Assembly (NCBI GenBank): GCA_028554795.2
Contig: CM068827.1
Span: forward strand, 77,621,677-77,685,676
Origin: Sinohyriopsis cumingii
Taxonomy: Eukaryota; Mollusca; Bivalvia; Unionida; Unionidae
DNA length: 64,000 nucleotides
Direction: 5' to 3'
Part shown: positions 12,108 to 64,000 of the stretch, in pieces
Numbering within the stretch: position 1 is the stretch's first letter
Layout of the letters: each line of letters opens with the position of its first letter
The notes under the pieces: model-generated
Told to the model about the DNA's origin: nothing
Seen by the model: the letters and a program-made list of their open reading frames with translations, nothing else
Databases searched by the model: none
Position numbers and translations under genes: made by a program

Positions 12108-12156
12108 GATCTAGCTTACTGGAATCGCAGTTGGAAAATTAATACTGAATTGTGGC

Positions 12157-12729: not shown

Positions 12730-12738
12730 TTTATTATT

Positions 12739-13765: not shown

Positions 13766-13788
13766 TATTTGATAGGAAACTGTTTAAA

Positions 13789-14658
13789 TCAACCCATGGT
13801 ATACTCGTGCACGATTTTGTGAGGTGAAATCTTTGATTTCGAGATCGCATCAAGAACATTTAATACTTCACGGCCACATATCGGAGGATCGGTCAGTGTT
13901 TGTGTTGGTAACGTTGAATACCAAACTTTCCCTGTCAGGGGGATGTTTTTTGTATATCGAAGAAATTCAACTGGTGGTGCTAACCCATACGAATCAAAAT
14001 AGATAATTCCACGTGGATCGATCGCGTAAGAAACCCAGTGAGTTCCTGGACCATCGCTGTTATCAAGATTAATAATTCCGGTTTCTGGATTACGTGGTTG
14101 TTGTGGTAATTGATCTCGCATAAAGACGCCTCTGAAATTTTTTATATTTAATTGTTTAACAGCATCGAGCAAATCAAAATTTGACATCGGTGTGAAAACA
14201 CTTAGAACCGTTTTGGGTACCATGATAGTGGAGTTCCTGGGAGTCTTAGCCCTGATCAGCGAGCGGATCTCCCCTTTTTTGTATCCTTTTCCTGTGGCTT
14301 TCTTTAGTGCCATTCCAGCAGCGGTTCCAACAGCTTCTAACGCAGCGGCTTTAGCGACTGCAGGGGCAGCAATAGCAGCTATCAACGCTGGTATTGCTGC
14401 GAGAAGTGGAAATATACCACCGGTTTTAACCATATCTTTGACCGCGGCTGGAGAGAAATCAAGTCGAACTCCAGTCGCTGCTTGTTTTGCTTTATTAAAA
14501 TGTTTTAGTTGGGTTTTAGTCAACGATAACTTGTTTGGACCGCCAGTAATCTGATCATTTTTTAGTGTTATCGTTGTCCCACATGTGCTCGCGTTTTTCG
14601 ATTGTAATTTCTTAGCCTGACCAGGAGTCAGAGTGACATTAACGTGACTGTATGACAT
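13789..14658 (-). CDS. Fusion: core/membrane-active domain plus adenain-type cysteine protease
   Basis: 289 aa. Residues 1-150 have a repeated LT..Q.KKL / LTKTQLKHF pattern, then an Ala-rich hydrophobic stretch (about 85-115, LLAAIPALIAAIAAPAVAKA) and a basic GKGYKKGE patch, as in small virion core proteins of this element class. Residues about 155-289 form the maturation protease: GTHWV (H207), YFDSYG (D222) and PPICGRE (C261). Element 2 carries the protease as a separate 186-aa gene. Here the C-terminus after the Cys is short, and the second Cys of the usual CGxxC is absent. Confidence 0.85.
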   Translation of the reverse strand: MSYSHVNVTLTPGQAKKLQSKNASTCGTTITLKNDQITGGPNKLSLTKTQLKHFNKAKQAATGVRLDFSPAAVKDMVKTGGIFPLLAAIPALIAAIAAPAVAKAAALEAVGTAAGMALKKATGKGYKKGEIRSLIRAKTPRNSTIMVPKTVLSVFTPMSNFDLLDAVKQLNIKNFRGVFMRDQLPQQPRNPETGIINLDNSDGPGTHWVSYAIDPRGIIYFDSYGLAPPVEFLRYTKNIPLTGKVWYSTLPTQTLTDPPICGREVLNVLDAISKSKISPHKIVHEYTMG

Positions 14659-14708
14659 TTCTTATAACTTTGCGATTGATCTAATTGTCTACATATTTTC
14701 GGAAAATA

Positions 14709-16103
14709 TTACATGTTTTCCACTGGTGCATCAACGAATCTCATTCGGCCGCCAGCACCTTCAAGTAACATTGCTTTATCGGAATGTATGACCGCGATTG
14801 CTCTGTAATTAGCTATAGCTCCTACGTCTCTATTCACGGTAGCCCGAAAGTGTATATCAACGACAGACTGTCTGGTTAAATCAAGATGCTCTAACGAGAA
14901 GTAATAGATTGGATAATGAGATATAAAATCCAATTGTGATATTTGCAAACCAGTATCGATATTCAGATCACGCGCTAGATATTTTGTCAATCGTTGATAT
15001 GCACGTGCAACATGATTATTACCAAAATGCAACAGTATGTTCTCAGACGGTTCTTGATGTCCGTTTATTCTCTGAGAAACGTCAGTAATACCAAGTTGAT
15101 CAAATATCATATGCGAGTGTGTTTGTGAGTTTACTCGTGCAGTATTTTGAAGAGCAATAAAAATATGTCGCGGCGCGGAAACCCCCTGCTGTGATGCTAT
15201 ATGCCATGTAAATAAACCATTGATGGTACTTTGAATACTATCTGTGGTTGTTGTAAGCCACGATAACAACAATTTACCACCTTGATCCACAAAAGAAAGC
15301 AGTCGTTGTTCTTCAGTAATTGCCGGAGTCATTACCGGCATCCACAGTGATAGTTTTGTTATTAATACTTTACCAGCATCACCAGCACCACCACCAGCTT
15401 CTCGCCATAAAGCATCATTATCGTCATTTTTTCTAATAAGCACGACTGTATGTTTTGCTCCGAAAATTACCTTTCTGACGTCTCGGCAAAATCCAAAGAT
15501 ATGCGACAGCGGAATCGCACAAGAAAATTTTCTACTATCTCCGCTCAACATTAATTTACGCGTATGAAAACCTAAATTAAAATTTGCATTAGCACCATGA
15601 ACCACCGGCCACACATCAGCGTCAGCGTTATTGGCAAAGTTTCTTGGTCGTCTAATATTGTACTGATCACTGTTAGGATGATTAGAAGTGTCCTTGGCAA
15701 ACATCATTGATGGACCAGCTGATCTTGTATAATCATCAGAATATCTCGCTAGACCAATTATTGTTGTAGCAACATCAACATCATTCTGAATCGATTCGAT
15801 ATTTTTTCCATCAATCATATATATGGCGCTACCAAACAAGGCCATAATTCCGTTATTGACAAAACCGATTTTAAACGCATCCCCGTAGTCTGTGTTATCT
15901 AATTTTTTAATTTCACCTTCTACTTCAATATACGCTTCAGCGGGTAGGAAATATCTACTTGTATCTTGAACCTGCAATTCAATTCGTCCTCGTTTATTTG
16001 GCTCTCGTGCGTCATAAGAATAATACTGATAATCACGCACTGATTCATTTTTAAGGACCGGTTCGTCTATGTCGAATGCTGGGTCGGATTCCCGTTTAAA
16101 CAT
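14709..16103 (-). CDS. Major capsid protein (double jelly-roll, hexon-like)
   Basis: 464 aa, intact. The N-terminal FKRESDPAFDID, then IELQVQDTSRYFLPAEAYIEVEG, are typical of the double-jelly-roll capsid proteins of Polintons and adintoviruses; the body is beta-rich throughout with no membrane segment. The start at 16103 is preferred over 16139 because the longer form would overlap the upstream gene, whose stop is at 16117. Forms the capsid shell. Confidence 0.85.
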   Translation of the reverse strand: MFKRESDPAFDIDEPVLKNESVRDYQYYSYDAREPNKRGRIELQVQDTSRYFLPAEAYIEVEGEIKKLDNTDYGDAFKIGFVNNGIMALFGSAIYMIDGKNIESIQNDVDVATTIIGLARYSDDYTRSAGPSMMFAKDTSNHPNSDQYNIRRPRNFANNADADVWPVVHGANANFNLGFHTRKLMLSGDSRKFSCAIPLSHIFGFCRDVRKVIFGAKHTVVLIRKNDDNDALWREAGGGAGDAGKVLITKLSLWMPVMTPAITEEQRLLSFVDQGGKLLLSWLTTTTDSIQSTINGLFTWHIASQQGVSAPRHIFIALQNTARVNSQTHSHMIFDQLGITDVSQRINGHQEPSENILLHFGNNHVARAYQRLTKYLARDLNIDTGLQISQLDFISHYPIYYFSLEHLDLTRQSVVDIHFRATVNRDVGAIANYRAIAVIHSDKAMLLEGAGGRMRFVDAPVENM

Positions 16104-16116
16104 TTTATTATAAAAG

Positions 16117-16578
16117 TTATCGTCTAAAACGAAGACCACTTCCCGCCACCAAACTTGTGTTTATTTGTTCAGGATTTATCCCTTGATTTATCAAGGCTGT
16201 TAGTTTTTGATTTGCGGCTTCATTTATTACTTTACTAACATTTGCAGGCATATCTGCGGTGGCTGGTAATTTTACCGGCGAACCTCTTTGAGGTGGACCC
16301 CCTTGGGTTCTGCGTATTAATCGTGCTAGTCTGTCCTTGATTGCCAGGAATGCTTTACTGGCAGCGCTACCAACAGCGCCAGTAGCTTTATCTTTAATAA
16401 CATCAATGGCTTTCATTGATAATTGTTTTGCGATCGGTATTGCTTTAGGTGCCATCCTCGCGAATAAACCCCGAACAACATCGCCGAGTCCGTTTCCGTA
16501 AGTCATCCTGTATACGGGTACTCGTGAATTTACAACCCTGACCATAACTGGTCTACGATAAGAATTGTGTACGATCAT
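16117..16578 (-). CDS. Small basic virion core protein (pVI/pX-like)
   Basis: 153 aa. Contains MTYGNGLGDVVRGLFARMAP, the same GxGLGD..+..F...AP.. motif as the core protein of element 2 (27065-27451). A helical region and a basic RLARLIRR patch follow. Known Polinton relatives carry such a protein next to the capsid gene; the link to adenovirus pVI or pX is by pattern only. Lies 13 bp upstream of the capsid start. Confidence 0.7.
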   Translation of the reverse strand: MIVHNSYRRPVMVRVVNSRVPVYRMTYGNGLGDVVRGLFARMAPKAIPIAKQLSMKAIDVIKDKATGAVGSAASKAFLAIKDRLARLIRRTQGGPPQRGSPVKLPATADMPANVSKVINEAANQKLTALINQGINPEQINTSLVAGSGLRFRR

Positions 16579-16603
16579 TTTATTTAATTAGTTATTTATT
16601 TAA

Positions 16604-17578
16604 CTAGTCGCTGTCAACAAGTTCATCAATAAGTTCTCGGTAGATGTGAGCATCCATGATGCCGCCGCGAAATAATCGCTGACAGATATCAGCTGCTTCA
16701 TTAATTATTTCTGGTGAGTTATTTCCGGCACGTCTTCCTCCGATGAGAACTTCTAACCGCGATACGTCATTGATAATATTATCAGGGCAGGGAATAAATT
16801 CACCTCCCAAACCACTGCCAGTTGCACTGGGAAATAGTAAATTGAGAACATCATCATCTTTTTCATCTGGACGCTCCTCCAATGGCGGTGAATAAGGAGG
16901 TGGAAGTCCTCGTCGTCTACTTTTGTGAAGTTTTTTCATTGTGCTTACAAGGGTTGGGTATTTTGAATCTTTATATTTAACCGTTTTCTTGTCGTAGTAT
17001 ACACGATACGCCCATTTAACAAAATTGGTATCAGTCGTGGACTTATATTTCTCGTTTAAAAATTTATCTTTGCTATATAAACCCTCTAATATCAATTCAG
17101 GTAATTTTTCTTCTGGTGTGTTCTTAAGGAGTTTAATAAAACCCGGATCAAATTTTGCAGTCAGTTCAACAATTTCCTTTGCTGCTTTGGGTGCATCAGC
17201 TTCGGCGACTTCAGTGCCTTCTTCAGCGGTGGGTGGAGGTTGAGCTGCAACTATATCAGTTGGAAGTTTTTGTAAAATCTTTTTTGTTTGTTTGGTTCTT
17301 TTTGCAATCTTTTCAGTTTGCTCAGCGGTTTGTTTTAACACTGGAAGAATACCCTTTTCATCTCCCAATAAAGCTCTTTCTGTGATCTCTGCAGCTTTTT
17401 CAGTAGCTGTTGTAACGGGTTTAAATAATTCTTCTGCACCTGTTGCAAATTCAACTTGTGCTTGCTGCCGCGCTTGTAATTTTTGTCTTACACTATCTCG
17501 TACAGGAAGAAATTTTTTTATTGCTTCTAGTCGCTCTCGAGCTAGTCTTGCGGAATGTGCTTCTCCGATGTTGGCCAT
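16604..17578 (-). CDS. Coiled-coil virion-block protein with PPPY motif
   Basis: 324 aa. N-terminal half strongly helical (residues 1-110), then a Pro/Glu/Ala linker, a compact region (about 135-215), a basic KKLHKSRRR stretch directly followed by GLPPPYSPP, an acidic segment and a helical end. PPxY motifs bind WW domains of Nedd4-type ubiquitin ligases; adenovirus pVI and retroviral Gag use them. It is the first gene of the minus-strand structural block, starting just inside the right TIR. Function otherwise unknown. Confidence 0.7.
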   Translation of the reverse strand: MANIGEAHSARLARERLEAIKKFLPVRDSVRQKLQARQQAQVEFATGAEELFKPVTTATEKAAEITERALLGDEKGILPVLKQTAEQTEKIAKRTKQTKKILQKLPTDIVAAQPPPTAEEGTEVAEADAPKAAKEIVELTAKFDPGFIKLLKNTPEEKLPELILEGLYSKDKFLNEKYKSTTDTNFVKWAYRVYYDKKTVKYKDSKYPTLVSTMKKLHKSRRRGLPPPYSPPLEERPDEKDDDVLNLLFPSATGSGLGGEFIPCPDNIINDVSRLEVLIGGRRAGNNSPEIINEAADICQRLFRGGIMDAHIYRELIDELVDSD

Positions 17579-17615
17579 TATTGTTAACTTAAATTTTTAA
17601 TTTACAGCAGCAGAA

Positions 17616-17898
17616 ACGGCGACGACAAGCAAACTCTGCCAGGGACTTTCACAGAGCAGCAGAGAAAGTGACGACGCCACCGAGTGTTTTCGCGAGATAC
17701 CCCTGTGCTAACAGAAATAGTTGTATAGGTAGATATTTTCATGAGATAACACTTCTAGTCAGCAGAGAAAGCCTATTTTGTCATGTTTTTCTGACTAGAA
17801 GGGTTTATTCTGTGAAAAATAATCTTTCTATCTAAAATGTTCTCGATAGAAGGCTCTGTTAAGCGAAATACTTTGTGGGATTCACTTTCTCTGCTGCT
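17616..17898 (-). repeat. Right terminal inverted repeat of element 1
   Basis: Inverted match of 1127-1409, ending ...CTTTCTCTGCTGCT and followed by the GCATC duplication at 17899-17903. Confidence 0.9.
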
Positions 17899-18435
17899 GC
17901 ATCGGAAACTGGCTGAATGTTTGAACAGGTCAAGCGGGAGACCAGAGCCACCTTGGTGATGTAGCAGAGTTTACCACTACCCCCTGATAAGCAAAACTTA
18001 ATTATGGTGCCCTTTCCAGTTACAAAAAGTCGTTTGATCGAAACTTTAGGTCACCATTGGGACTGCACCACTACCCTTTCCACCCCCACTCCCAACTACT
18101 GAAGTTACGGGGGTTTCCATTACTGCATTTTGCTGATAAATATAAAATATTATTGTATTTGTATGAGTAAGATTTAACAATTTAATATTGCATATCGCAG
18201 TCTTGAGTGGATCGAGTTTGCTTCAAGAGCGATGGTCTCATCATTAAACCCTGATTTCATCTTCTTTCACGTATCGGTTCCGAAATATACATACTGCACA
18301 CACACAATTGTATTCCATGAGTGATACTTTGAGTCGTAATAATTTATTTTCTGTTATCTGAACCACGCCGATATTTCTCAATCCAGCTCATTGCAATAGA
18401 GTGCATATAAATCATATAAACTTTGGTGTACTATC

Positions 18436-21624: not shown

Positions 21625-22078
21625 TAGTGAATGGGGCCACCCTAGGGTCTATGGGAATTAGCATTAAAACACCCCTGGGCCACTCTAGGGTCTATGTAAA
21701 TTTAACATGGACAAAACCTCTAGGCCACTCTAGGGTCTATGGGAATTAACATGGACAAAAGTCTTGGGCTGGTCTAGGGTCTATGTAAATTTAACATTAA
21801 TCACTCTGGGCCACTCTAGGGTCTATGGGAATTAACATGGACAAAAATCTTGGGCTGGTCTAGGGTCTATGTAAATTTAACATTAATCACCCTGGGCCTG
21901 TCTAGGGACTAGGGGAAATGGAACAGGGTCGGGACCCTATTTTAATACGGTCCCGACCTGATGGGTCTCTATTTGTTTTTAAAAAAAGAAAAAAATAATT
22001 AAAAAAAATGGGGTAGGCAATTGAAAGTCTATCTCTTTTCGAGAGATTGGAGTGGCCCTGAAAAGGGCCTTTGGGTTT
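21623..22078 (+). repeat. Left TIR of element 2 with tandem array
   Basis: The outer 300 bp are seven direct repeats of about 43 bp built on CTAGGGTCTATG...AATTTAACAT. Then comes a strong hairpin, GGTCGGGACC (21927-21936) with GGTCCCGACC (21949-21958) around an AT-rich 12-nt loop. The inner end carries a histone-type stem-loop. Inverted match at 41032-41490. Confidence 0.92.
22054..22069 (-). terminator. Histone-type 3' stem-loop, copy A
   Basis: On the minus strand: AAAGGCCCTTTTCAGGGCC then ACTCC, i.e. a 6-bp stem, UUUC loop, preceded by AAA. It lies 25 nt after the stop of the 22094-22672 gene. A second hairpin with a purine-rich AAAAGAGA block follows at about 22029-22047, in the position of a histone downstream element. 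Confidence 0.75.
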
Positions 22079-22093: not shown

Positions 22094-22672
22094 CTAACTC
22101 CTTAACTTCTTTATCCATCCCCTTATTTTTTCCATCATTCCTTTCTTCTTCTTTTCTGTTTCCGGTATCCAGGCCGGGTGACCCATGGCTCGGAACTTCT
22201 GTTGGATTTTCATCCAGTTAGCGTTTAGTTTCTCTAGTTCTTCCGTTTTCTTTCTATTTGCTTCTTCTTTTCTATCTTTTGCCCACCTGTCCTTTATTTT
22301 CTCCACTTCTTCATCTATCACCTTTCTCATCTTTTCTTCCCCTTTTTTCAATTGTTCAACACTCCTTTTGACAAAGGGCCACTCTGACCTATGTTCTATC
22401 TCTTCCAAGAACCTTCTTACTTCCTTTACCTTCTCCATGGCCTCTTTTATTGTCCCCACTCTGACATAAGGGGGATTTATCAGCCCTCTCAATCTCTTTA
22501 CTTCTTCTTCAATTAATCCCTCTATCATCTCCCTGGCTAATTTTAGTCCGTTCACGTAGTGCAGACTTGTTCTTAACTTCCAATCTCTTTCAATCCTTTC
22601 AACTCCATATGCACCATCCACCATCCAAAAATAAACATGCCTTAAATCATTAGACAGTTGGGACACTTCCAT
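22094..22672 (-). CDS. Accessory helical protein, left-end cassette 1
   Basis: 192 aa, largely helical with charged heptad-like stretches (about residues 50-160, e.g. EKVKEVRRFLEEIEHR) and a basic C-terminus. A decayed homologue is at the left end of element 3 (43240-43759). Expression signals are visible: the shared upstream motif ends 58 nt before the ATG, and a histone-type stem-loop lies 25 nt after the stop. No known domain recognised. Confidence 0.75.
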   Translation of the reverse strand: MEVSQLSNDLRHVYFWMVDGAYGVERIERDWKLRTSLHYVNGLKLAREMIEGLIEEEVKRLRGLINPPYVRVGTIKEAMEKVKEVRRFLEEIEHRSEWPFVKRSVEQLKKGEEKMRKVIDEEVEKIKDRWAKDRKEEANRKKTEELEKLNANWMKIQQKFRAMGHPAWIPETEKKKKGMMEKIRGWIKKLRS

Positions 22673-23102
22673 CTTCCTTTTTTATTCCTTAGAATGGTGC
22701 GAACGACGAACTTTCTGGGTTCTTATAGTTAAAGCGCGGACGTGATGGAAAACATCCCCCTAAAACAAAATTAATATTAACTAGATCATAACCAAACAAC
22801 GCGCGGACTTGAAGGAAAACATCCCCTACTTTTCTCATTTCATATGATCTACTATCCACATACCTGAAGCAACAATAAACAAACCCAAAATCTACTATCC
22901 ACACACGCAAAGCATTAAAATGAAACCCCAAATTTACTATCCACACAAACATACGTGATCACTTACAAAGCCCAATAATCTACTATCCATACAAACGTAC
23001 GTCAACTCTTACAAACACATACACTCACACCACATGAGAGTCAGTGTTTATATTCACACTACTCTACATACACACATTGGCAAATGGATTACTTTTTCTT
23101 TT
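22673..23102. repeat. Intergenic spacer 1, duplicated at 23457-23875
   Basis: Contains the shared promoter motif (22731-22759), a second partial motif (about 22798-22827, GCGCGGACTTGAAGGAAAAC), short CTATCCACA repeats, and a block ending TCTACATACACACATTGGCA (about 23060-23082). The same order recurs in spacer 2, so the gene cassettes arose by duplication. No gene here. Confidence 0.75.
22731..22759 (-). promoter_or_regulatory. Shared upstream motif, cassette 1
   Basis: On the minus strand reads GGGGATGTTTTCC, then ATCACGTCCGCGCTTT. Its inner end is 58 nt from the ATG at 22672. The near-identical motif precedes the other two left-end genes at 59 and 57 nt. No TATA box is seen, so this may be the core promoter. 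Confidence 0.65.
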
Positions 23103-23456
23103 CTAGAGATTGGGGTAGCCCTGAAAAGGGCTGTTTGTTTTTGAACTCCAGTGACACCTGGTTAATGATGGCACCTTCCAGGTCTGGCACCACACACACA
23201 TCTTCTTCCCCAGTCTCCTTTTACTTTTTTTTCTTGGGAGTGCAGAGGCGGGATACGTGGCTTCAGAATCCCAATTTTCTGTCTCTGGGATTCTGAAATT
23301 TCCTCTCTCCTTTTCCTCCTCTTCTATTTTTCTTCTTTCCTCCTCTTTCATCCTTCCCTCTTCTACTATGGCCTCCGCGGCCAGTTCATTTATTATGCGC
23401 CTGGCATATTCCAGATGCATCTGGAGTTCAAGAAGTTTGCTTATTCTGGTATTCAT
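23103..23456 (-). CDS. Accessory helical protein, cassette 2; 3' end uncertain
   Basis: 117 aa as read. Residues 1-60 are helical and very charged (ELAAEAIVEEGRMKEEERRK). The frame runs through the histone-type stem-loop to a stop at 23103. Because the stem-loop should be untranslated and an A8 run lies near 23225-23232, a frameshift there is likely and the true C-terminus differs. Upstream motif 59 nt before the ATG. Function unknown. Confidence 0.5.
   Translation of the reverse strand: MNTRISKLLELQMHLEYARRIINELAAEAIVEEGRMKEEERRKIEEEEKERGNFRIPETENWDSEATYPASALPRKKSKRRLGKKMCVWCQTWKVPSLTRCHWSSKTNSPFQGYPNL
23117..23132 (-). terminator. Histone-type 3' stem-loop, copy B
   Basis: Minus strand: AGCCCT-TTTC-AGGGCT followed by ACCCCA, then AGAAAAGAAAAAG as the purine-rich downstream block. 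The first base pair is A-U instead of G-C. Confidence 0.7.
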
Positions 23457-23875
23457 TGTCTTGTTAATGAATGAACAGGGTAGCTAGACTGCCAAGCGAG
23501 TTTCAATTTTTACTAAAAGCGCGGACGTGATGGAAAACATCCCCTAAAACAAAATTGATCTTACCTAGATCATAACCAAACAACGCGCGGACCTAAAAGA
23601 AACACTCACTCACTTTTTTATACTACCCATCACTATTCTAAAAAATTTTATTAAATAAATAATATACTATCCACATAAGCAAAGCAATCAAATCAAACCC
23701 CAAATCTGCTCTCCACGCACGTCAAACAGCAAAAAAAAAACAAAACATGATCATTATCTACTATCCATACAAACACATACACTCACACCACAAAAGAGTC
23801 AGTGTTTATATTCACACTACTCTACATACACACATTGGCAAATCCATTGTTATTTCTTTTCTAGAGATTTGGGGT
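23457..23875. repeat. Intergenic spacer 2, duplicate of spacer 1
   Basis: Same order of blocks as 22673-23102: the motif, CCCTAAAACAAAATTGATCT, CTAGATCATAACCAAACAAC, a second partial GCGCGG motif (about 23584-23600) and the ACTCTACATACACACATTGG block. No gene. Confidence 0.75.
23516..23544 (-). promoter_or_regulatory. Shared upstream motif, cassette 2
   Basis: Identical to the cassette 1 motif over its 29 bases; inner end 59 nt from the ATG at 23456. Confidence 0.65.
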
Positions 23876-23891
23876 AGCCCTGAAAAGGGCT
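23876..23891 (-). terminator. Histone-type 3' stem-loop, copy C
   Basis: Minus strand: AGCCCT-TTTC-AGGGCT then ACCCCAAATC and AGAAAAGAAA. Lies 30 nt after the stop of the cassette 3 gene. Confidence 0.72.
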
Positions 23892-24344: not shown

Positions 24345-24372
24345 AAAGCGCGGACGTGAAGGAAAACATCCC
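24345..24372 (-). promoter_or_regulatory. Shared upstream motif, cassette 3
   Basis: Minus strand reads GGGATGTTTTCC, then TTCACGTCCGCGCTTT; one base differs from the other two copies. Spacing to the ATG is 57 nt. Confidence 0.65.
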
Positions 24373-39789: not shown

Positions 39790-39956
39790 TTAGGTATAAA
39801 AAGGTAAGTGTCTTTGAGTTTTGATTTTAAAATAAGAACGTACACTCACACACTCATACACATACTATAGGGTAAAATGGGTTGATTTGTTTTTATTTTT
39901 TTAGTTTGAATGGACGTTGGCAATTGAAAGTCTATCTCTTTTCGAGAGACGTGGGT

Positions 39957-39972
39957 GGCCCTGAAAAGGGCC
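39957..39972 (-). terminator. Histone-type 3' stem-loop, copy D (best match)
   Basis: Minus strand: AAAGGCCCTTTTCAGGGCC followed by ACCCA, matching the metazoan histone consensus including the ACCCA 3' flank. A CTCTCGAAAAGAGATAGAC purine-rich block follows. Lies 22 nt after the stop at 39995. Confidence 0.82.
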
Positions 39973-39994
39973 TTTATTTGGTGTAGGGGTGAGT

Positions 39995-40567
39995 TTAAGC
40001 AATCAACTTTAACTGCCTTAAGCCTTTGCCATGGCCAAGGCCTACTTCTGGACCGCGTACTGTTGATGATGATGATGATTTGGTTGAAATCACTAAGGGT
40101 GGCACGGTAGGCTTAGTCACAGAGTTGGAGTGTTTAGCTCGGGAAGGTCGTATTCTCTTCGGTCGTAATAAAGAAGTTTGATACATTTGTTTCAGACTTC
40201 TTAACTCCGCTAAAATGTCTAACAATACCGTGACCGTTTGATTTTCACACCCTTGTTTCTTTGCTGCTGCTGCTTCTTCTTCTTCTTGTTTTGTTCTTAC
40301 CTCTTCTTCTTGCTGTTGTTGCTGTAGGAGAAAAGCTTGTTCCGCTTCCTTTTGTCGTTGTATAAATTTCTCCAATTCTTCTTTCTGTCTCTGTCTAAAA
40401 TTCTCCACGTGCGGTAATGAAGGAGACGAAGGTTCCGGAACAAATTCTTGCGAGGTAAGAAAATCCACAAAATCCCAATTTACCTGTTCTGAAAGTAAGT
40501 CCGGGTTCCCTTGGGTGGTCTCCACTGCTGGTGCACCCAAATTGATCGTTTTCTGAGTTTCAGTCAT
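39995..40567 (-). CDS. Coiled-coil accessory protein, right-end minus gene
   Basis: 190 aa from ATG 40567 (MTETQKTI). An N-terminal hydrophobic/acidic WDFVDFLTSQEF motif, a Glu/Gln-rich coiled coil (about 60-115), a short hydrophobic helix (VTVLLDILAELRSLKQMY) and a basic, Ser-rich tail. The TATA box at 40613-40621 would place transcription start about 20 nt before this ATG, which argues against the longer frame starting at 40627. Intact in element 3 (56923-57498). Function unknown; could be a regulator. Confidence 0.72.
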   Translation of the reverse strand: MTETQKTINLGAPAVETTQGNPDLLSEQVNWDFVDFLTSQEFVPEPSSPSLPHVENFRQRQKEELEKFIQRQKEAEQAFLLQQQQQEEEVRTKQEEEEAAAAKKQGCENQTVTVLLDILAELRSLKQMYQTSLLRPKRIRPSRAKHSNSVTKPTVPPLVISTKSSSSSTVRGPEVGLGHGKGLRQLKLIA

Positions 40568-40786
40568 GTTGAATAACTGTTGCATGAATTGACTGCGCAC
40601 AGGCGCTAGCGAATCTATATAGACCACGTGACGTCACAGACTGCTCTCTTCGGATTGGATGCGGGCTGACTGAATTATGTAACGCGTGTTTGGATTGGTC
40701 AATGAACTCAATCCGTTTCAATCCTTCCTCTACCTATAAATAAGCGCAGTTCACTGCATTGATTCACCTGTTCTCGGCGCCTCAAG
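40568..40786. promoter_or_regulatory. Bidirectional promoter with CRE, E-box and CCAAT boxes
   Basis: Contains TATATAG (minus, 40613-40621), CACGTG (40625-40630) overlapping the palindromic CRE TGACGTCA (40629-40636), inverted CCAAT boxes (ATTGG at 40654-40658 and 40694-40698), and TATAAATA (plus, 40735-40742). It drives two divergent genes that both end in histone-type stem-loops. The CRE, CCAAT and TATA boxes are preserved in element 3; the E-box is CATGTG there. Confidence 0.75.
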
Positions 40787-41017
40787 ATGTGGACCGACGT
40801 TGAATCTTCCACCCTTGTATCTTCGATGAAGTTCAGGACGGACATACCGAGATATGTCCGATCCAAATTTACAGTTATCCATAGGACCGACACCAGCCTA
40901 TGGATACGTAGGATTTACGTGGAGAGGCAAGGATGCCTCAAAAAAGTGTTAGTGTATGGACCTACCATTAAACGAAGCCTAAGACGAAGAAGATGTTGCA
41001 GATGCCCTTTATGTTAA
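40787..41017 (+). CDS. Small Arg-rich protein, right-end plus gene
   Basis: 76 aa, intact: MWTDVESSTLVSSMKF, a beta-looking middle (FTVIHRTDTSLWIRRIYVER) and a basic end RSLRRRRCCRCPLC. ATG 40787 is 45 nt after the TATA box. Element 3 has a full-length homologue (57719-57949) with many substitutions and no indel, indicating a real coding frame. A histone-type stem-loop starts 24 nt after the stop. Function unknown. Confidence 0.72.
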   Translation: MWTDVESSTLVSSMKFRTDIPRYVRSKFTVIHRTDTSLWIRRIYVERQGCLKKVLVYGPTIKRSLRRRRCCRCPLC

Positions 41018-41031
41018 GGGCATATTAACAT

Positions 41032-41490
41032 AAACCCAAAGGCCCTTTTCAGGGCCACTCCAATCTCTCGAAAAGAGATAGACTTTCAATTGCCTACCCC
41101 ATTTGTTTTTTAATTATTTTTTTTATTTCTTAAAAACAAATAGAGACCCATCAGGTCGGGACCGTATTAAAATAGGGTCCCGACCCTGTTCCATTTCCCC
41201 TAGTCCCTAGACAGGCCCAGGGTGATTAATGTTAAATTTACATAGACCCTAGACCAGCCCTAGAGTTTTGTCCATGTTAATTCCCATAGACCCTAGAGTG
41301 GCCCAGAGTGATTAATGTTAACTTTACATAGACCCTAGACCAGCCCAAGATTTTTGTCCATGTTAATTCCCATAGACCCTAGAGTGGCCCAGAGGTTTTG
41401 TCCATGTTAAATTTACATAGACCCTAGAGTGGCCCAGGGGTGTTTTTTATTCGAATTCCCATAGACCCTAGGGTGGCCCCATTCACTACT
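41032..41490 (-). repeat. Right TIR of element 2
   Basis: Inverted match of 21623-22078 with a few small indels, ending CCCCATTCACTACT and followed by TATATA. Confidence 0.92.
41041..41056 (+). terminator. Histone-type 3' stem-loop, copy E
   Basis: Plus strand: CAAAGGCCCTTTTCAGGGCC then ACTCC, in the orientation of the plus-strand gene ending at 41017. A second hairpin (ATCTCT-CGAAA-AGAGAT) and purine-rich AAAAGAGATAGA follow. Confidence 0.75.
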
Positions 41491-42773: not shown

Positions 42774-43230
42774 AGTAGTTATGTGGGACGGTTTAGCCTC
42801 AAGTGGGATTAGCATTTCAAACCACCCTGGGACCGTTTAGCCTCAATGGAAATTTAACATTACGGAAACCCCTGGGACTGTTTAGCCTCAAGGGAATTTA
42901 ACATAGGAAAAAAAATTTTCGGACTGTTTAGCCTCAAGGGAATTTAACATGGGAAAAAAATAATCTTGGGACTGTTTAGCCTCAAGGGAATTTGACATGG
43001 AAAAATCTTGGGACTGTTTAGCCTCATGGGGAAATGGAACAGGGTAGGGACCCTATTTTAATAGGGTCCCGACCTGATGGGTCTATGGAAATGGAACAGG
43101 GAAAAATTGAAACAGGGAGGGTCTCTATTTTTTTTTTAAAAATAAAAAAATATTAAAAAAATGGGGTAGGCAATGAAAGTCAAGGTCTTTTCGAGACCTA
43201 TGAGTGGCCCTGAAAAGGGCCTTTGGGTTT
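42774..43230 (+). repeat. Left TIR of element 3 with tandem array
   Basis: Six repeats of about 43 bp built on GGGACTGTTTAGCCTCAAGG with AATTTAACAT, then GGGACCCTATT...AATAGGGTCCC and the stem-loop. The core of the repeat differs from element 2, while the AATTTAACAT part and the layout are shared. Confidence 0.9.
43206..43221 (-). terminator. Histone-type 3' stem-loop, copy F
   Basis: Minus strand: CAAAGGCCCTTTTCAGGGCC then ACTCA, followed by hairpin AGGTCT-CGAAA-AGACCT. Lies 18 nt after the stop at 43240. Confidence 0.73.
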
Positions 43231-43239: not shown

Positions 43240-43772
43240 CTAACTCCTCCACTTCTTCCACCAAGTTCTCACATTTTCCATTATTCCTTTCTTCTTCCTC
43301 TTTTCAGTTTCTTTTATCCAGTCAGGATGACCCATCGCTCTGAATTTCTGTTGGATCTTCATCCAGTTGTTATTCAATCTTTCAAACTCTAATTTCTTCT
43401 TCTTATTCACTTCTTCCTGTCTCTCTTTGCTCCATTTTTCTTTTATCTTCATCACTTCTACTTTCATTACCTCTCTAATTAGTTCTTCTGCTTTTATCAA
43501 CTGGTTAAAACCCCACTTTACGTACCACCAGTCAGTCCAATAAAAGCTATTTTCTAGGAAGCTCCTGACTTCTATGACATGATCCAAGGCTACCTACTCT
43601 CACGTAAGGTGGGTCAATGAATCCTCTGATTCTTTCTACTTCTTCCTCAATCATTCCCCCTATTAGATCTTTTGCTACTCCAAGACTCTTCACACTGTTC
43701 AGGCTACCTTCAAATATTCCTTCCTTATTCAATCTTTCTACTACATAAGTCCCATCCATGATCCAAAAATAG
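43240..43772 (-). pseudogene. Decayed cassette 1 homologue
   Basis: Two frames (43240-43587 and 43547-43759) correspond to the 192-aa protein of element 2 (WMKIQQKFRAMGHPDWI; EEEVERIRGFIDPPYVRVG). A frameshift near 43570 splits it, and the first residues are lost at the large deletion junction near 43772. Confidence 0.8.
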
Positions 43773-56627: not shown

Positions 56628-56888
56628 TTTAGAAAACAGAGAGAGTGAACAATGAGGCAGAAGAAGTTTATGAACTTTTTAATGTTGTTATGTTGTGTAT
56701 TGTGAATTGGATTGTAAATATTTATAAAAGAATAAATTAGATATAAAGGTAAGTGTCTTTGGGTTTTGATTGTAAAATAAGAACCTACACTCACGCACAC
56801 TCATACACAGACACTTACTATTGGGTAAAATGTTTGTTTTTTTAGTTATTGGCAATTGAAAGTCTATCTCTTTTCGAGAGACATGGGT

Positions 56889-57718: not shown

Positions 57719-57949
57719 ATGTGGACCGACGTGCAATCTTCAACACTTGTGTCTTCTATGATGTTCTGGTCGGACATACCTATGTATGTCCGATCCGACT
57801 GGACAGTTATCCACAGGACAGACACCAGCCTGTGGATGCGAAGAATATATGTGGAGCGTCAAGGATGCCTCAAAAGAGTACTCATTTACGGTCCTGCAGT
57901 CAGGCGCAGCTTAAGAAGAAGAAGATATCACAGATGCCCTTTATGTTAA
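57719..57949 (+). CDS. Small Arg-rich protein, right-end plus gene
   Basis: 76 aa, same length as 40787-41017, substitutions spread along it, no indel; ends RSLRRRRYHRCPLC. Confidence 0.72.
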   Translation: MWTDVQSSTLVSSMMFWSDIPMYVRSDWTVIHRTDTSLWMRRIYVERQGCLKRVLIYGPAVRRSLRRRRYHRCPLC

Positions 57950-57969: not shown

Positions 57970-58340
57970 AAACCCAAAGGCCCTTTTCAGGGCCACTCAT
58001 AGGTCTCGAAAAGACCTTGACTTTCATTGCCTACCCCATTTTTTATTTTTTATTTTTTTTTCTTTTATTTTTTTTAAAAAATAGAGACCCTCCCTGCTTC
58101 AATTTTCCCGTTCCATTTCCATAGACCCATCAGGTCGGGACCGTATTAAAATAGGGTCCCGACCCTGCTCCATTTCCCCTTGAGGCTAAACAGTCCCAAG
58201 ATTTTTCCATGTTAAATTCCCTTGAGGCTAAACAGTCCCAGGGGTTTCCGTAATGTTAAATTTCCCATTGAGGCTAAACGGTCCCAGGGTGGTTTGTAAT
58301 GCTAATTCCCCTTGAGGCTAAACCGTCCCACACAACTACT
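57970..58340 (-). repeat. Right TIR of element 3
   Basis: Inverted match of 42774-43230 but about 85 bp shorter: four repeat units instead of six. Ends ACACAACTACT, followed by CAGGAT. Confidence 0.9.
57979..57994 (+). terminator. Histone-type 3' stem-loop, copy H
   Basis: Plus strand: CAAAGGCCCTTTTCAGGGCC then ACTCA, 30 nt after the stop at 57949, followed by hairpin AGGTCT-CGAAA-AGACCT. Confidence 0.75.
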
Positions 58341-59980: not shown

Positions 59981-60000
59981 ATCCATGTTGTAAAGAAATT

Positions 60001-60345
60001 TTAAGTTTGATGAATATTACTTGAATCATGGGAATCTTCATCTGTTTCATCTTTATTTGTTCTATGTTTCAAGTAATATTCAAGTTCTGATGGTGGTTTT
60101 TCTATTTTTGGATTTATGTTTTTTCTTTTTCTGTAATATATCATCAAACTTCTGTATCGATCTCCACCGCAATTTTTGCAAATCTGATATAATCCTCTAA
60201 CGCCGTTGTTACATCCAACACATCTTCGTGGACCGGCATGAGGGTTTTTCTTTACAAGATAATTATGTTTTTTGCAATATTCTCCACGACATTTTTTATC
60301 ACATTTGTTAGTGGTTCCTTGACGCAGCCACGCACAATTGTTCAT
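60001..60345 (-). CDS. Cys/His-rich zinc-binding protein
   Basis: 114 aa. CAWL...C...C....C..H, CVGC and CKNCGGDRYR clusters, then a basic RKRKN stretch and an acidic tail (DETDEDSHDSS). Homologous to 7089-7304 of element 1, but in element 4 it lies at the terminal end beside the ATPase rather than next to the polymerase N-terminus. Function unknown. Confidence 0.75.
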   Translation of the reverse strand: MNNCAWLRQGTTNKCDKKCRGEYCKKHNYLVKKNPHAGPRRCVGCNNGVRGLYQICKNCGGDRYRSLMIYYRKRKNINPKIEKPPSELEYYLKHRTNKDETDEDSHDSSNIHQT

Positions 60346-60385
60346 TATATTAATGATATCAGTTTAATTTTATCATCACCCCCCG

Positions 60386-61051
60386 TTATCCAAATATTTT
60401 ATCAAGTCCAATACGATATCTTGTTCTAGGATCGTGCAAATTTATTGTTATAAACCCGTGCGGAGTAGTTTGCGCTCGTGAAAAGAAGTTTCTGAATTTA
60501 ATTATATCCATGTCACCGCTGCACCAGGTTTGATGAATATTTCGCAACGTGTGTGTGTCTACGCCATTAAACACAACTGAAATGTTACAGTTATCTCTGA
60601 TCACTTTTGGTATTTGTGTGTATCGTTGAGTAACATAAATAACATCGGTATTTTTATGTCTACCACGGGAAAAAATCCTAGCTGGATTTGACTGTTTATC
60701 TAGCATCACATCATCATACACAACTAAATTATTATTAAATCCGTTTAAAACATCAACGGACGGTGCTTCATCAATATCTGTTATAAACTCTATAACATCA
60801 TTATTTTCGTCCAGTAATCGCGCGTTTTCGTTAAAATCTTTAAGTACTTCATAACATCGTTGATCATCAGCGGATGGTGCTACCAAATACAACTTATCCC
60901 ATTTCAACCATCTCATTATCAGATTAAGTAATAATTGCGTCTTACCCGATCCAGATGGTCCCATGATAATCATTCTGATGGAATTCGGTAGTGCAGGATG
61001 GTGTTTAACTGGCTCTCGCTGCCGAGTTGCTGAGAAATCAATTATATCCAT
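60386..61051 (-). CDS. A32/FtsK-HerA-type packaging ATPase
   Basis: 221 aa, intact; RMIIMGPSGSGKT (Walker A at 31-38), NNLVVYDDVMLD (Walker B) and VIYVTQRYTQIPKVIRD. Most residues match the element 1 protein. Divergent from the PLA2-like gene with 12 bp between the two start codons. Confidence 0.92.
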   Translation of the reverse strand: MDIIDFSATRQREPVKHHPALPNSIRMIIMGPSGSGKTQLLLNLIMRWLKWDKLYLVAPSADDQRCYEVLKDFNENARLLDENNDVIEFITDIDEAPSVDVLNGFNNNLVVYDDVMLDKQSNPARIFSRGRHKNTDVIYVTQRYTQIPKVIRDNCNISVVFNGVDTHTLRNIHQTWCSGDMDIIKFRNFFSRAQTTPHGFITINLHDPRTRYRIGLDKIFG

Positions 61052-61063
61052 ATATATTATAAC

Positions 61064-61561
61064 ATGAATTTATATTGTTTACGCTGTAAAGTTAAAACTC
61101 CAACCACTGATTTACCTACGGTTATAACAAAAAATAAAAAAATAGCGTATGGTGGAAAATGTTCTGTATGCGGTAGAAAGAAATTTTCGTTTTTACCTAA
61201 TAGGCGCGGTGGTGATATTGCTAATTTGATGTCAAAGTTTCCAGGTGCTCCATGGGCTAAATACAGCGGAGAAAAACATCTACCAGGATATAATTATTGC
61301 GGTCCTGGTACTCGACTCGATATCAGGCTTGATAATCAGGATCAACCGGGCGAGGAAACAGTAAACGCCATTGATCGAGCTTGTCATGTTCATGATGTAG
61401 CTTATAAGAGTAAAAATCTACAAGATAGGCATATTGCAGATGTGAAATTAATTCATGCATTAAATTCCATAAAAAATAAAAATATCAGAGAATCATTAGC
61501 TAATTGGTTAGTAAGATCCGCGATGAAAAGTAAATTAGCGCTAGGGGCTGGTAATATATAA
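61064..61561 (+). CDS. Zinc-ribbon plus phospholipase A2-like protein
   Basis: 165 aa, intact. N-terminal CLRC...CSVC ribbon (residues 5-38), then the PLA2 core: YNYCGPGTRLDIRL (calcium loop) and DRACHVHDVAY (His-Asp pair). Similar PLA2 domains act in parvovirus entry; the role here is inferred. The stop TAA shares its last base with the integrase ATG (TAATG), as in element 1, which may couple translation. Confidence 0.88.
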   Translation: MNLYCLRCKVKTPTTDLPTVITKNKKIAYGGKCSVCGRKKFSFLPNRRGGDIANLMSKFPGAPWAKYSGEKHLPGYNYCGPGTRLDIRLDNQDQPGEETVNAIDRACHVHDVAYKSKNLQDRHIADVKLIHALNSIKNKNIRESLANWLVRSAMKSKLALGAGNI

Positions 61562-62529
61562 TGGAATCGATTTATTATTCACCAATTGGATACTGGAAGG
61601 GTAAATCAGCAATTAGTAAACTCGCTGATGCAGCAGCGGTTAAACATTCTGCCGCTAGCGCGTGGTTGTCCAGGCAGGCAATATGGCAAATTTATCTACC
61701 ACGTCCTAAACGAATTCAGTACGCGTATTTCGATGTCAGTGTTCCTAATGAAGTTCATCAAGCTGATATTTTATTTTTACCATATGATACTGTACGTAGA
61801 AAAACGTACAAATACGCGCTAACTGTCATTGACGTTGCAAGTAGATATAAAGAAGCAGAACCGTTAACGACTAAAACAGCCGCTGAAGTAGCCGACGCAT
61901 TTAAACGAATTTATCAACGAGGTGGTGGACCACAAAGTGGTCTGCGATGGCCACAGCTGCTACAGGTTGATCCTGGCAAGGAATTTCTTGGTCCAGTATC
62001 ATCGTTGATGAAACAACATAATACCAAAATACGACGAGGGCATACTGCAATTCATCGTGATCAGGCAATTGTTGAGCGATTTAATCGAACACTCGCTGAG
62101 CGGTTATTTGGATATCAATACGCAAAGGAATTGATTCAGGATAAAAGATCTCGTGAATGGGTGGCAAGATTACCAAGCGTGATAGCTGCATTAAATAATG
62201 AGATTACACGAACAACCAACATGAAACCCATTAATGCAATTACCAAAACAAATATACCAACACAACGAAAAGATATTGAAAAACAAAAAATATTGGGTGA
62301 TGTTACAGTTAGATATTTATATGAGCCCGGCGAACTTGAAGGCGGTAAAGCGAGAGCGACTGATCCTATTTGGAGTGTTACCACGCATAAGATATCCACC
62401 GTGACAAGATCGCCAGGTAGACCCGCAATCTACAGACTAGATTCGGCTGCTCCTCAACGCGGATTTGTGCGTGAACAATTACAAGTGATCCCTACGGATA
62501 CACAATTACCACCAAAATCACTTAACTAG
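61561..62529 (+). CDS. Retroviral-type DDE integrase
   Basis: 322 aa, intact. Catalytic residues fit D69 (VHQADILFL), D137 (LQVDPGKEF) and E172 (AIVERFNRTL). The N-terminal 50 residues look like a helix-turn-helix (AISKLADAAAV...AASAWLSRQ), and the C-terminal beta-rich part (VRYLYEPGELEGG, WSVTTHKIS) resembles an SH3-like integrase tail. No chromodomain is seen, unlike family B. Its end overlaps the convergent polymerase-helicase gene by 8 bp. Confidence 0.92.
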   Translation: MESIYYSPIGYWKGKSAISKLADAAAVKHSAASAWLSRQAIWQIYLPRPKRIQYAYFDVSVPNEVHQADILFLPYDTVRRKTYKYALTVIDVASRYKEAEPLTTKTAAEVADAFKRIYQRGGGPQSGLRWPQLLQVDPGKEFLGPVSSLMKQHNTKIRRGHTAIHRDQAIVERFNRTLAERLFGYQYAKELIQDKRSREWVARLPSVIAALNNEITRTTNMKPINAITKTNIPTQRKDIEKQKILGDVTVRYLYEPGELEGGKARATDPIWSVTTHKISTVTRSPGRPAIYRLDSAAPQRGFVREQLQVIPTDTQLPPKSLN

Positions 62530-64000
62530 CACTGGCGCCTCTGGGTCGATTACATTCAAGACAGGTCAACATGATATTTTCTCGTGTATGACCAAGATTG
62601 TTATTTTTTCTATCTACGGTAAATTGTCTTGGATCATTTTTCAGATACCGCCATAACATTATACAATTACAACTTGCACAATGATTATTCTGTTGTTGTT
62701 TTAGCGCATTAATAAAATCAACATCAAGATCAAAATTGCGTTTATTTTTTTTATCACACTGTTTATAACCAGATAATTTTTTTCTTATTATATCACCGTC
62801 AACATCATCATTGATCACTGACGAGTCCATGACGATTCGTCTCAATTGAGATATTTTTCTAACTCGAGATACTGCGAGATAAACCAAGTTCGACCATTCG
62901 ATGTGATCATCAACGATCCAAACAACTGTGTCAGTAATAGTTAATCCCTGAGATGAATGAATCGTCATCGCGTATCCGAGCGTCCACGGGGATTTATCAG
63001 CACGTAGAGCATCTTCAACAACATCAACGTCGACGGCAACAATATCATTCAATACAAGATTCTGTTTCCTCTTTGACTCTCCTGGTATATCAACGTCGAT
63101 ATTTTGCCGTCGCGTATCTGCTGGTCGATAACATAACGGAACTGACAACGTTGGAAACTTTTCTCGTTGTAACTGAAAGAATTCCCGTTGAAGTTTATCA
63201 CGAACTATCTTTCTGCTTGCAACTATCAAATCGTTTGGTCGCCACGTTTGCATAAAGTCTTTCATGTGTGTTTCTGACATTATCTCGCGCATTATTTCAC
63301 ACTGTATTTTATTCGGTTGCAGTCTGATTAATTTTTTAAATTCCTTCAATGCTGCATCAAGTGCTCTATGATCATCAGTTATTTCTTCGTAGTGGTCGAC
63401 AAAGTTCTTTAGCCAATCATGTGGAGATGGTCCAGCTACAGGTGGTGGTTGACCGTGATCGCCGCACATTATCACAGCAGTATTTCTTGTTAACAACCAA
63501 TCAAGAAATGTTTTTACTGTTTCTTGCGGTACAGTGCATATTTCATCCCATATTATAATCCTTGGAATGTATTTCTCACCCATCCTTAAAGATGTCCATG
63601 TATCACCCTTCCATCGAAAAAAGCTGTGATAAGTACAGGAATTAACACCGCGTTGTTTCATCTCTCGCGCGAGTCTATGTGTGGGTGTTAGCACGATCAT
63701 ATCCGAGTTCTGAAATAGTTCGATAGCTCGAGTGGTTTTACCACTGCCGCCAGGTCCGTTTAGATAAACCGTTTTGTGTCTAGTTATTGGATCGTATATC
63801 GATGGTAACAACGAAGTTGTCAACGTTTGATATTTTTTACAGTAAATATCTTTAACCGCAACATCAGCGGATTCGGAATAATCGAGCATATATTCATTTT
63901 TTATTCTCCACGAACCCCACGATGCATAAGTGTCTATGTTTAATCCTTCTAACAGCGTTGAATGTTTTTTGCTTATATAAAACGAATCGGTAGCAACTCT
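62522..64000 (-). CDS. DNA polymerase B - SF1 helicase - HNH fusion (3' part, runs off window)
   Basis: Open without a stop from the window edge to 62522. It begins inside polymerase motif C (RVATDSFYISKK) and continues into the SF1 helicase: LNGPGGSGKTTRAIEL (motif I), TYHSFF, IIWDEICTVPQ (motif II), MCGDHGQPP (motif III), LGYAMTIHSSQGLTI and VYLAVSRVR (motifs V-VI). It ends with HCASCNCIML, FTVDRKNNNLGHTRENIM and CLECNRPRG, an HNH-like treble clef. This is the best evidence that polymerase, helicase and HNH form one polypeptide in family A. Confidence 0.9.
   Translation of the reverse strand, partial: RVATDSFYISKKHSTLLEGLNIDTYASWGSWRIKNEYMLDYSESADVAVKDIYCKKYQTLTTSLLPSIYDPITRHKTVYLNGPGGSGKTTRAIELFQNSDMIVLTPTHRLAREMKQRGVNSCTYHSFFRWKGDTWTSLRMGEKYIPRIIIWDEICTVPQETVKTFLDWLLTRNTAVIMCGDHGQPPPVAGPSPHDWLKNFVDHYEEITDDHRALDAALKEFKKLIRLQPNKIQCEIMREIMSETHMKDFMQTWRPNDLIVASRKIVRDKLQREFFQLQREKFPTLSVPLCYRPADTRRQNIDVDIPGESKRKQNLVLNDIVAVDVDVVEDALRADKSPWTLGYAMTIHSSQGLTITDTVVWIVDDHIEWSNLVYLAVSRVRKISQLRRIVMDSSVINDDVDGDIIRKKLSGYKQCDKKNKRNFDLDVDFINALKQQQNNHCASCNCIMLWRYLKNDPRQFTVDRKNNNLGHTRENIMLTCLECNRPRGASAS

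What the first reader, a model, noticed from the sequence alone, without database searches (positions are those of the whole stretch)
39957..41056. Polinton genes ending in histone-type mRNA 3' stem-loops
Eight hairpins of the form GGCCCU-UUUC-AGGGCC (copies at 22054, 23117, 23876, 39957, 41041, 43206, 56889 and 57979) lie at the ends of the accessory genes at both ends of elements 2 and 3. Stem length (6 bp), loop (UUUC), 5' AAA and 3' ACCCA-like flank match the metazoan replication-dependent histone stem-loop bound by SLBP. Each is followed by an AAAAGAGA or AGAAAAGA block, where U7 snRNA would pair. Six are on the minus strand after minus genes and two on the plus strand after plus genes, so orientation follows transcription. 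The start of each hairpin is 18-30 nt from the stop in the seven clear cases. Core genes (protease, X/Y/Z chain, zinc-knuckle) have AATAAA instead. I know of no description of this in Polintons.
Basis: partly seen in the sequence, partly recalled or inferred. Interest (0 to 1): 0.88.

Follow-up and report, generated by a model that had tools for sequence, protein, structure and literature searches.

The report
Polinton genes disguised as histone genes
Virus-like mobile elements in an animal genome give several of their non-histone genes the same RNA-ending signal, and some of them the same promoter sequence, as the animal's own histone genes, which suggests that they use the cell's DNA-replication programme to express these genes.

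Summary
All 8 hairpins are at the stated places. Rfam Histone3 matches all 8, 5 above its cut-off. A model built only from the host's five histone 3' ends finds all 8 at 39-52 bits; the next best place in the window scores 15.8. The same module follows accessory genes of dispersed Polinton copies: 73 of 73 gene ends not used for selection, and 20 of 20 gene-B copies sampled by protein rank. Stem, loop, flanks, the AAAAGA block 14-15 nt after the stem and a further pyrimidine-TG block all match the host histone genes. New here: three genes (A, D, E) carry a promoter element matching 24, 24 and 23 of 24 bases of the host H2B promoter; D also shares 21 of 21 bases with the H4 promoter. Best explanation: host SLBP/U7 machinery ends these mRNAs without poly(A), tying these genes to S phase. 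No RNA data were available, and U7 and SLBP were not found with these tools. A known signal in a new setting; ten paper searches found no description.

The parts
22034..22069 (-). histone-type 3' module of gene A, element 2: stem-loop 22054-22069, AAAAGA 22034-22039; at the inner end of the left terminal inverted repeat
   Evidence: (51.9 bits)
22094..22672 (-). accessory gene A (192 aa, no Pfam family above cut-off)
22733..22756 (-). promoter element of gene A, 24/24 identical to host H2B promoter
22800..22823 (-). second copy of the promoter element upstream of gene A (3 mismatches)
23097..23132 (-). histone-type 3' module of gene D: stem-loop 23117-23132 with A-U closing pair, AAAAGA 23097-23102
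   Evidence: 50.2 bits
23103..23456 (-). accessory gene D; in this copy the open frame runs past the hairpin
23518..23541 (-). promoter element of gene D, 24/24 identical to host H2B promoter
23582..23602 (-). second promoter element of gene D, 21/21 identical to host H4 promoter
23855..23891 (-). histone-type 3' module of gene E: stem-loop 23876-23891 with A-U closing pair, AAAAGA 23855-23860
   Evidence: 47.9 bits
23922..24287 (-). accessory gene E (121 aa)
24347..24370 (-). promoter element of gene E (1 mismatch to host H2B promoter)
39937..39972 (-). histone-type 3' module of gene B, element 2: stem-loop 39957-39972, AAAAGA 39937-39942
   Evidence: 36.0 bits; 47.9 bits
39995..40567 (-). 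accessory gene B, element 2 (190 aa from the second ATG)
40568..40786 (+). divergent promoter region between B and C: CCAAT boxes, TGACGTCA, TATAAATA; only weak likeness to host H2A promoter (21 of 2000 shuffles reach the score)
40787..41017 (+). accessory gene C (76 aa, arginine-rich C terminus, no Pfam family)
41041..41076 (+). histone-type 3' module of gene C, element 2: stem-loop 41041-41056, AAAAGA 41071-41076; at the inner end of the right terminal inverted repeat
   Evidence: 51.9 bits
43186..43221 (-). histone-type 3' module of the interrupted gene A copy of element 3: stem-loop 43206-43221, AAAAGA 43186-43191
   Evidence: 48.8 bits
56869..56904 (-). histone-type 3' module of gene B, element 3: stem-loop 56889-56904 with one stem mismatch, AAAAGA 56869-56874
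   Evidence: 27.0 bits; 39.1 bits
56923..57558 (-). accessory gene B, element 3
57719..57949 (+). accessory gene C, element 3 (76 aa, no Pfam family)
57979..58014 (+). histone-type 3' module of gene C, element 3: stem-loop 57979-57994, AAAAGA 58009-58014
   Evidence: 48.8 bits

Best explanation
These are working histone-type expression signals used by a Polinton family for its non-histone accessory genes. Each gene's RNA carries the SLBP-binding stem-loop and, 14-15 nt after it, the U7-pairing histone downstream element; the host's histone pre-mRNA machinery would cut about 5 nt after the stem and leave an mRNA without poly(A). Genes A, D and E also carry a proximal promoter element that matches that of host histone genes. 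The expected result is expression in S phase and mRNA turnover when host DNA synthesis stops. Shown here: the sequence signals, their match to this host's own histone genes, their place, orientation and conservation. Inferred: SLBP/U7 processing, the missing poly(A) tail, S-phase coupling, and that the proteins serve an early or replication-linked phase of the element.
For: Host-histone-trained model R1 (5 sequences) finds 8 of 8 window sites at 39.1-51.9 bits, next best 15.8 bits, E 0.81. In 60 genome loci (60 of the 75 Histone3 hits scored were fetched) it finds 138 sites: the 60 selected ones and 78 others. 130 of the 146 sites (138 plus the window's 8) directly follow a homologue of genes A-E; the other 16 were not assigned. 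Gene 3' ends not used for selection: B 25/25, C 14/14, D 19/19, E 14/14, A 1/1 carry it. 20 of 20 gene-B copies taken by protein rank carry it. Spacing stem to AAAAGA is 14 nt in 138 of 146, 15 in 7 and 11 in 1; host histones have 14, 14, 14, 15, 15 (H4 by eye). In gene C, the cleanest case, identity is 0.99 in the stem-loop and 0.96 in the GAAAAGA block against 0.74 in the coding end and 0.54 at +43 to +80. Host unit L069 against the window by blastn: all 22 rows with E < 0.01 fall on these 3' modules or on the promoter elements of A, D and E; a reversed query gives nothing below 0.18. Promoter element at gene starts, none of them chosen by promoter: A 8/8, D 17/17, 59-71 nt upstream.
Against: No RNA evidence. 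U7 was not found: Rfam U7 0 hits with silent controls, two patterns gave fewer matches (55, 37) than their reversed controls (72, 47), and the 38 places fetched held no Rfam U7 match at its cut-off. SLBP (PF15247) was not found, though a 70-residue domain split by introns can be missed. Genes B and C lack the promoter element (0 of 39 and 0 of 40 starts), and 24 of the 59 motif places in the 60 loci were not assigned to an A, D or E start. Covariation is essentially one pair, G-C in A, B, C and A-U in D, E; the number of pairs with double changes does not exceed shuffles. In B and E the coding end is as conserved as the stem-loop. AATAAA occurs within 200 nt after the stem in 15 of 146 copies. 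Genes A-E have no assigned function.
Confidence: 0.82

Rival explanations
1. Decayed or passive remnants: a histone 3' flank was captured once by an ancestor and is carried along, with no present role.
For: Elements 2 and 3 and the terminal-repeat copies are close duplicates; the window copies of D and of element-3 gene A look damaged; in B and E the coding end is as conserved as the stem-loop, so there the contrast is weak.
Against: The module is kept at five unlike gene ends, 73/73 unselected ends, and in gene C it is more conserved than the adjacent coding end (0.99 against 0.74). Both stem classes keep pairing.
Confidence: 0.06
2. Mixed 3' ends: the stem-loop is present but mature mRNAs are polyadenylated downstream; the hairpin then serves SLBP-dependent translation or localisation only.
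For: PMC1924863 (passages read) describes worm histone genes with hairpin and polyadenylation signal close together; the passages seen do not settle which end is used. In the window AATAAA lies 16 and 97 nt after the stop of B (element 2), and ATTAAA 147, 148 and 239 nt after A, C and the element-3 B.
Against: The U7-type block is kept at fixed spacing, as in the host's own histones. AATAAA follows the stem within 200 nt in only 15 of 146 copies, AATAAA or ATTAAA in 32; of the five host histone genes only H4 has AATAAA there.
Confidence: 0.08
3. A DNA-level or element-encoded function: a palindrome used as protein-binding site, in replication of the terminal repeats, or as a virus-specific transcript-end hairpin such as those reported for giant viruses (recalled).
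For: Two of the modules in each of elements 2 and 3 sit at the inner ends of the terminal repeats.
Against: D, E and B modules are not in the repeats; orientation follows the gene; the unpaired flanks, loop and downstream block match the host histone genes.
Confidence: 0.03
4. Chance or assembly artefact.
For: None found.
Against: Shuffles give 0.16 matches; copies lie on many contigs.
Confidence: 0.01

Closest known systems
Metazoan replication-dependent histone mRNA 3' end (Rfam RF00032 Histone3 plus histone downstream element)
   Same: 6-bp stem, 4-nt loop (UUUC in 141 of 146), AAA or AAC before (141 of 146), ACCCA after (111 of 146), U7-type AAAAGA block 14-15 nt on (145 of 146), stem 15-43 nt after the stop in 107 of the 114 copies for which a stop was found
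   Different: The genes do not encode histones and lie in mobile virus-like elements; [quoted passage not shown]
Host tandem histone repeat (L069: H3, H4, H2B, H2A, H1)
   Same: Same stem variant in 4 of 5, same downstream block and spacing, a pyrimidine-TG-pyrimidine block 12-15 nt further on, same promoter element (H2B, H1, inverted in H2A; H4 shares another with D)
   Different: The only DNA matches to the window below E 0.01 are start and end signals; histone proteins match nothing in the window or the 60 loci
Polinton/Maverick elements and adintovirus-like 'meldviruses'
   Same: Terminal inverted repeats, rve integrase with chromodomain, weak PolB and adenovirus-type protease matches
   Different: PMC11071296 and PMC11071308 (searched by term, passages seen) have 0 occurrences of 'stem-loop'; the former mentions histone-like proteins in adomaviruses and tailtomaviruses, a different thing
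Giant-virus hairpin transcript ends (recalled, not looked up)
   Same: Hairpin at the gene end
   Different: No SLBP-type sequence, flanks or U7 block (recalled)

Membership tests
Replication-dependent histone 3' end module | Covariance model match (RF00032) | tested here: met
   8 of 8 at E up to 0.002, 5 of 8 over the gathering score
Replication-dependent histone 3' end module | Match to this host's own histone ends | tested here: met
   R1 8 of 8, 39.1-51.9 bits
Replication-dependent histone 3' end module | Downstream element at fixed distance | tested here: met
   14-15 nt in 145 of 146, host 14-15 (H4 by eye)
Replication-dependent histone 3' end module | U7 snRNA complementary to the downstream element | tested here: inconclusive
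   U7 not found
Replication-dependent histone 3' end module | SLBP in the host | tested here: inconclusive
   PF15247 no significant hit, controls silent
Replication-dependent histone 3' end module | Mature mRNA without poly(A), cut 4-5 nt after the stem | not testable with these tools
   No RNA data
Replication-dependent histone gene | Encodes a histone | tested here: not met
   No histone family among Pfam matches for A-E; host histones by tblastn match nothing in the window or the 60 loci
Replication-dependent histone gene | Histone-type promoter | tested here: met
   A, D, E only; B and C not met
Polinton/Maverick | Terminal inverted repeats and rve integrase | tested here: met
   repeats in elements 2 and 3; integrase in element 2
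Polinton/Maverick | Protein-primed PolB, protease, double jelly-roll capsid | tested here: inconclusive
   PolB 25.6 bits (cut-off 25.8), protease 16.3 (cut-off 21.3) in element 2; a double jelly-roll match only in element 1; not every frame was scanned

The most novel reading that the evidence does not exclude
A class of animal mobile DNA virus relatives has rebuilt its accessory gene units as histone-gene mimics: a host histone promoter element (A, D, E), a short uninterrupted frame, and the host's SLBP/U7 3' end (A-E). They would be the first known non-histone animal mRNAs made and destroyed by the histone programme, so that the element senses and uses S phase. The shared downstream pyrimidine-TG block, also in all five host histone genes, may be a further, undescribed contact, perhaps with the U7 5' end.
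Probability: 0.72. Interest if true: 0.93.

Novelty: new variant of a known kind. Interest (0 to 1): 0.88.

Why it matters
Histone mRNAs are described as the only animal protein-coding mRNAs that end in a stem-loop rather than poly(A) (PMC6303110, abstract seen). A mobile element that uses the same start and end signals would break that rule. It would give a natural test of which sequence parts suffice for histone-type processing, and would offer a mechanism by which a DNA virus relative ties its genes to host DNA synthesis without encoding a cell-cycle sensor. It also warns genome annotators: of the 60 Histone3 hits fetched here, 59 lie by these element genes and none of the 60 loci matches a histone protein.

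Tried and rejected
Rejected: chance, terminal-repeat palindrome only (B, D and E sites are outside the repeats), passive remnant. U7: Rfam, patterns, 38 places fetched, folded and scanned with Rfam; the other matches were not fetched. The two best-looking (L070, L071) turned out to lie antisense to decayed element hairpins (Rfam match for L071; L070 by eye); L122 and L118 reach only 22.0 and 21.0 bits against a cut-off of 34. SLBP; the best weak match (L114) does not read like SLBP by eye. IMG/VR: first stem pattern 0 contigs, a second with any of three loop letters 1 contig, inside a 784-residue frame that looks like a phage tail gene, 21.3 bits, taken as chance; gene B and integrase no relatives. 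Gene B has 19 relatives in metagenome contigs, gene A none; C, D and E were not searched. Structure of gene B: one long helix, mean pLDDT 65, pTM 0.23, not used further. A, D and E as paralogues: not supported by pairwise BLASTP. A second small hairpin around the downstream block pairs over 5-7 bases in most A, B and C copies but only 3 in most D and E copies; the same script's host-histone lines were off by one base, so no host count is claimed. B/C promoter against host H2A: 21 of 2000 shuffles reach the score, weak. Host species: not identified (COX1 search did not complete). Papers: ten searches; no title or abstract listed describes histone-type ends in Polintons. The HINFP/MIZF likeness of ACGTCCGC is recalled; two papers asked for by DOI were not held.
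Full report
OBSERVATION. Rfam's Histone3 model lists all eight, five over its gathering score, and these five are the only gathering-level Rfam matches in the window. Seven begin 18-30 nt after a stop codon; the eighth, at 23117, lies inside the 3' end of an open frame that overruns it. Of the 20 D copies, 11 have a stop found near the stem: 10 stop 25-36 nt before it, and the eleventh, with the overrun, has the value of the window's own copy.

SETTING. The window is a stretch of a 2.9 Gb genome in 1138 contigs. Repeats mark elements with inverted ends at 1126-1409/17616-17899, 21666-22006/41106-41446 and 42967-43104/58103-58240. Element 2 has an rve integrase with chromodomain over cut-off, and PolB and adenovirus-protease matches under their cut-offs. 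Element 1, with a double jelly-roll match, and the sequence at the right edge have no hairpin. Five genes end in the module: A (22054, 43206), D (23117), E (23876), B (39957, 56889) and C (41041, 57979). None has a Pfam family at its cut-off.

COMPARISON WITH THE HOST'S OWN HISTONE GENES. Histone genes lie in a tandem repeat with a unit of about 8.3 kb (from the coordinates). One unit (L069) holds H3, H4, H2B, H2A and H1, each followed by a Histone3 match of 35.0-39.4 bits. Four of the five use GGCCCUUUUNAGGGCC, the stem variant of most Polinton hairpins, where the Rfam consensus has GGCUCU..AGAGCC. A model built from these five host ends alone (R1) finds 8 of 8 window sites at 39.1-51.9 bits; the ninth place scores 15.8, E 0.81. 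Host and element share the spacing from stem to AAAAG: host 14, 14, 14, 15, 15 (its script caught an earlier AAAA run in H4, so that value is by eye); elements 14 in 138, 15 in 7 and 11 in 1 of 146. A further block follows: host CTGCC, TTGTC, TTGTT, TTGCC and TTGTC for H3, H4, H2B, H2A and H1, 12-15 nt after AAAAGN (H4 by eye). With the narrower words TTGCC, TTGTC, TCGCC, TCGTC or TTGCT, 137 of 146 element copies have one at 12-15 nt, 2 at other distances, 7 none. Its role is unknown.

GENOME-WIDE. Of 589,472 first-look candidates 75 were scored as Histone3 hits. I fetched 60 of the 75. All 60 show the hairpin, and 59 of 60 match at least one of the window's accessory proteins; L068 matches none. 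No host histone protein matches any of the 60 loci or the window, while L069 is found. R1 finds 138 sites in the 60 loci: the 60 selected and 78 others. Of the 146 including the window, 130 follow a homologue of A-E within the set limits; 16 were not assigned, of which by eye 14 resemble A ends and 2 resemble E ends. Counting gene ends that played no part in the selection and had 200 bases of room, 73 of 73 carry the module: B 25, C 14, D 19, E 14, A 1. These loci were chosen for a strong hairpin elsewhere in the same element, so a second sample was drawn by protein rank only: 20 of the 150 scored gene-B copies (of 26,167 first-look candidates), about every seventh row down to row 135. R1 finds the module in 20 of 20, at 34.8-51.1 bits. 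In 14 of these 20 the stem-loop fits the pattern with no mismatch, in 5 with one, in 1 with two. The 150 are the copies most like the window's, so old and decayed copies are not sampled.

CONSTRAINT. Mean pairwise identity (unselected and window copies for B, C, D and E, n = 27, 16, 20 and 15; selected copies included for A, n = 27) is 0.95-0.99 in the stem-loop and 0.95-0.99 in the GAAAAGA block, against 0.52-0.92 at +43 to +80 and 0.61-0.86 at +81 to +120. The coding end (-80 to -41) is at 0.74 in C and 0.72 in A, but 0.95 in B, 0.89 in D and 0.96 in E, so in B and E it is as conserved as the stem-loop. The clean contrast is therefore gene C. The stem pairs in 97.2% of 726 cells. The outer pair is G-C in 43 of 43 C, 13 of 13 A and 34 of 39 B copies and A-U in 19 of 20 D and 15 of 15 E copies. 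This looks like one or few ancestral double changes; the covariation score exceeds 500 of 500 shuffles, but the count of pairs with double changes does not.

PROMOTERS. Unasked for, the start signals match too. The word GATGTTTTCCATCACGTCCGCGCT of the host H2B promoter occurs exactly upstream of A (22733) and D (23518), with one change upstream of E (24347), and with three at a second site upstream of A (22800). These are the only four places in 64 kb at up to 6 mismatches, against 0 in ten first-order random sequences. Host H1 carries it with 1 change and H2A, inverted, with 4. Gene D also shares 21 of 21 bases with the H4 promoter. In the 60 loci, 8 of 8 testable A starts and 17 of 17 D starts have the element, 59-71 nt upstream; no E start was testable; B and C have none (0 of 39, 0 of 40). 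Of 59 places with the element in the 60 loci, 35 were assigned to an A, D or E start and 24 were not. How common the element is elsewhere in the genome is unknown; that search did not complete. A plain blastn of the host histone unit against the window gives 22 rows with E below 0.01, and every one is a 3' module or one of these promoter elements; the reversed unit gives nothing below 0.18. The core ACGTCCGC resembles the site of the histone factor HINFP/MIZF; that is recalled and could not be checked.

MECHANISM. Known biology: U7 snRNP cuts histone pre-mRNA 4-5 nt after the stem-loop (PMC7026596, passages), and U7 pairs with the downstream element, helped by SLBP (PMC1924863, passages). By sequence, the Polinton transcripts offer the same handles in the form this host uses. 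I therefore think that A-E are ended as histone genes are, that A, D and E are also started as histone genes are, and that all are favoured in S phase. Whether the proteins push or merely exploit S phase is open: none has a family assignment, and gene B models as one long helix at low confidence.

LIMITS. No RNA data; U7 and SLBP were not located; host species not identified; AATAAA does occur within 200 nt after the stem in 15 of 146 copies; the search of other Polintons was limited to IMG/VR, which gave only a chance match. Novelty rests on ten paper searches in one open library (listed in Tried and rejected) and is therefore provisional.

Noticed in passing
window 1126-17899 and about 60000-64000: Another Polinton-like family (double jelly-roll match in element 1; integrase and helicase-type matches at the right edge; 79-84% alike in the three repeat blocks shown), without any histone-type hairpin.
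   Followed up: partly
L069 (3' flanks of all five host histone genes) and element copies: A pyrimidine-TG-pyrimidine block 12-15 nt after AAAAGA is shared by all five host histone genes and, in a narrower form, by 137 of 146 Polinton modules; it might pair with the U7 5' end.
   Followed up: partly
window 22034-22050, 43186-43202 and equivalents: The downstream block is self-complementary (UCUCU..AGAGA; GGUCU..AGACC in element 3) in most A, B and C copies, less so in D and E.
   Followed up: partly
G000:C7:89989656-89990222: One gene-B copy lies in an open frame of 1881 residues, far longer than the 191-275 of the other rows listed.
   Followed up: no
G000:C10:118969412-119022052: Eight matches to a U7-like Sm pattern, several spaced 2588 bases apart, suggest a tandem array; the two copies fetched do not score as U7.
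   Followed up: partly
window 43240-43740: The element-3 copy of gene A is interrupted, yet its 3' module is intact.
   Followed up: no
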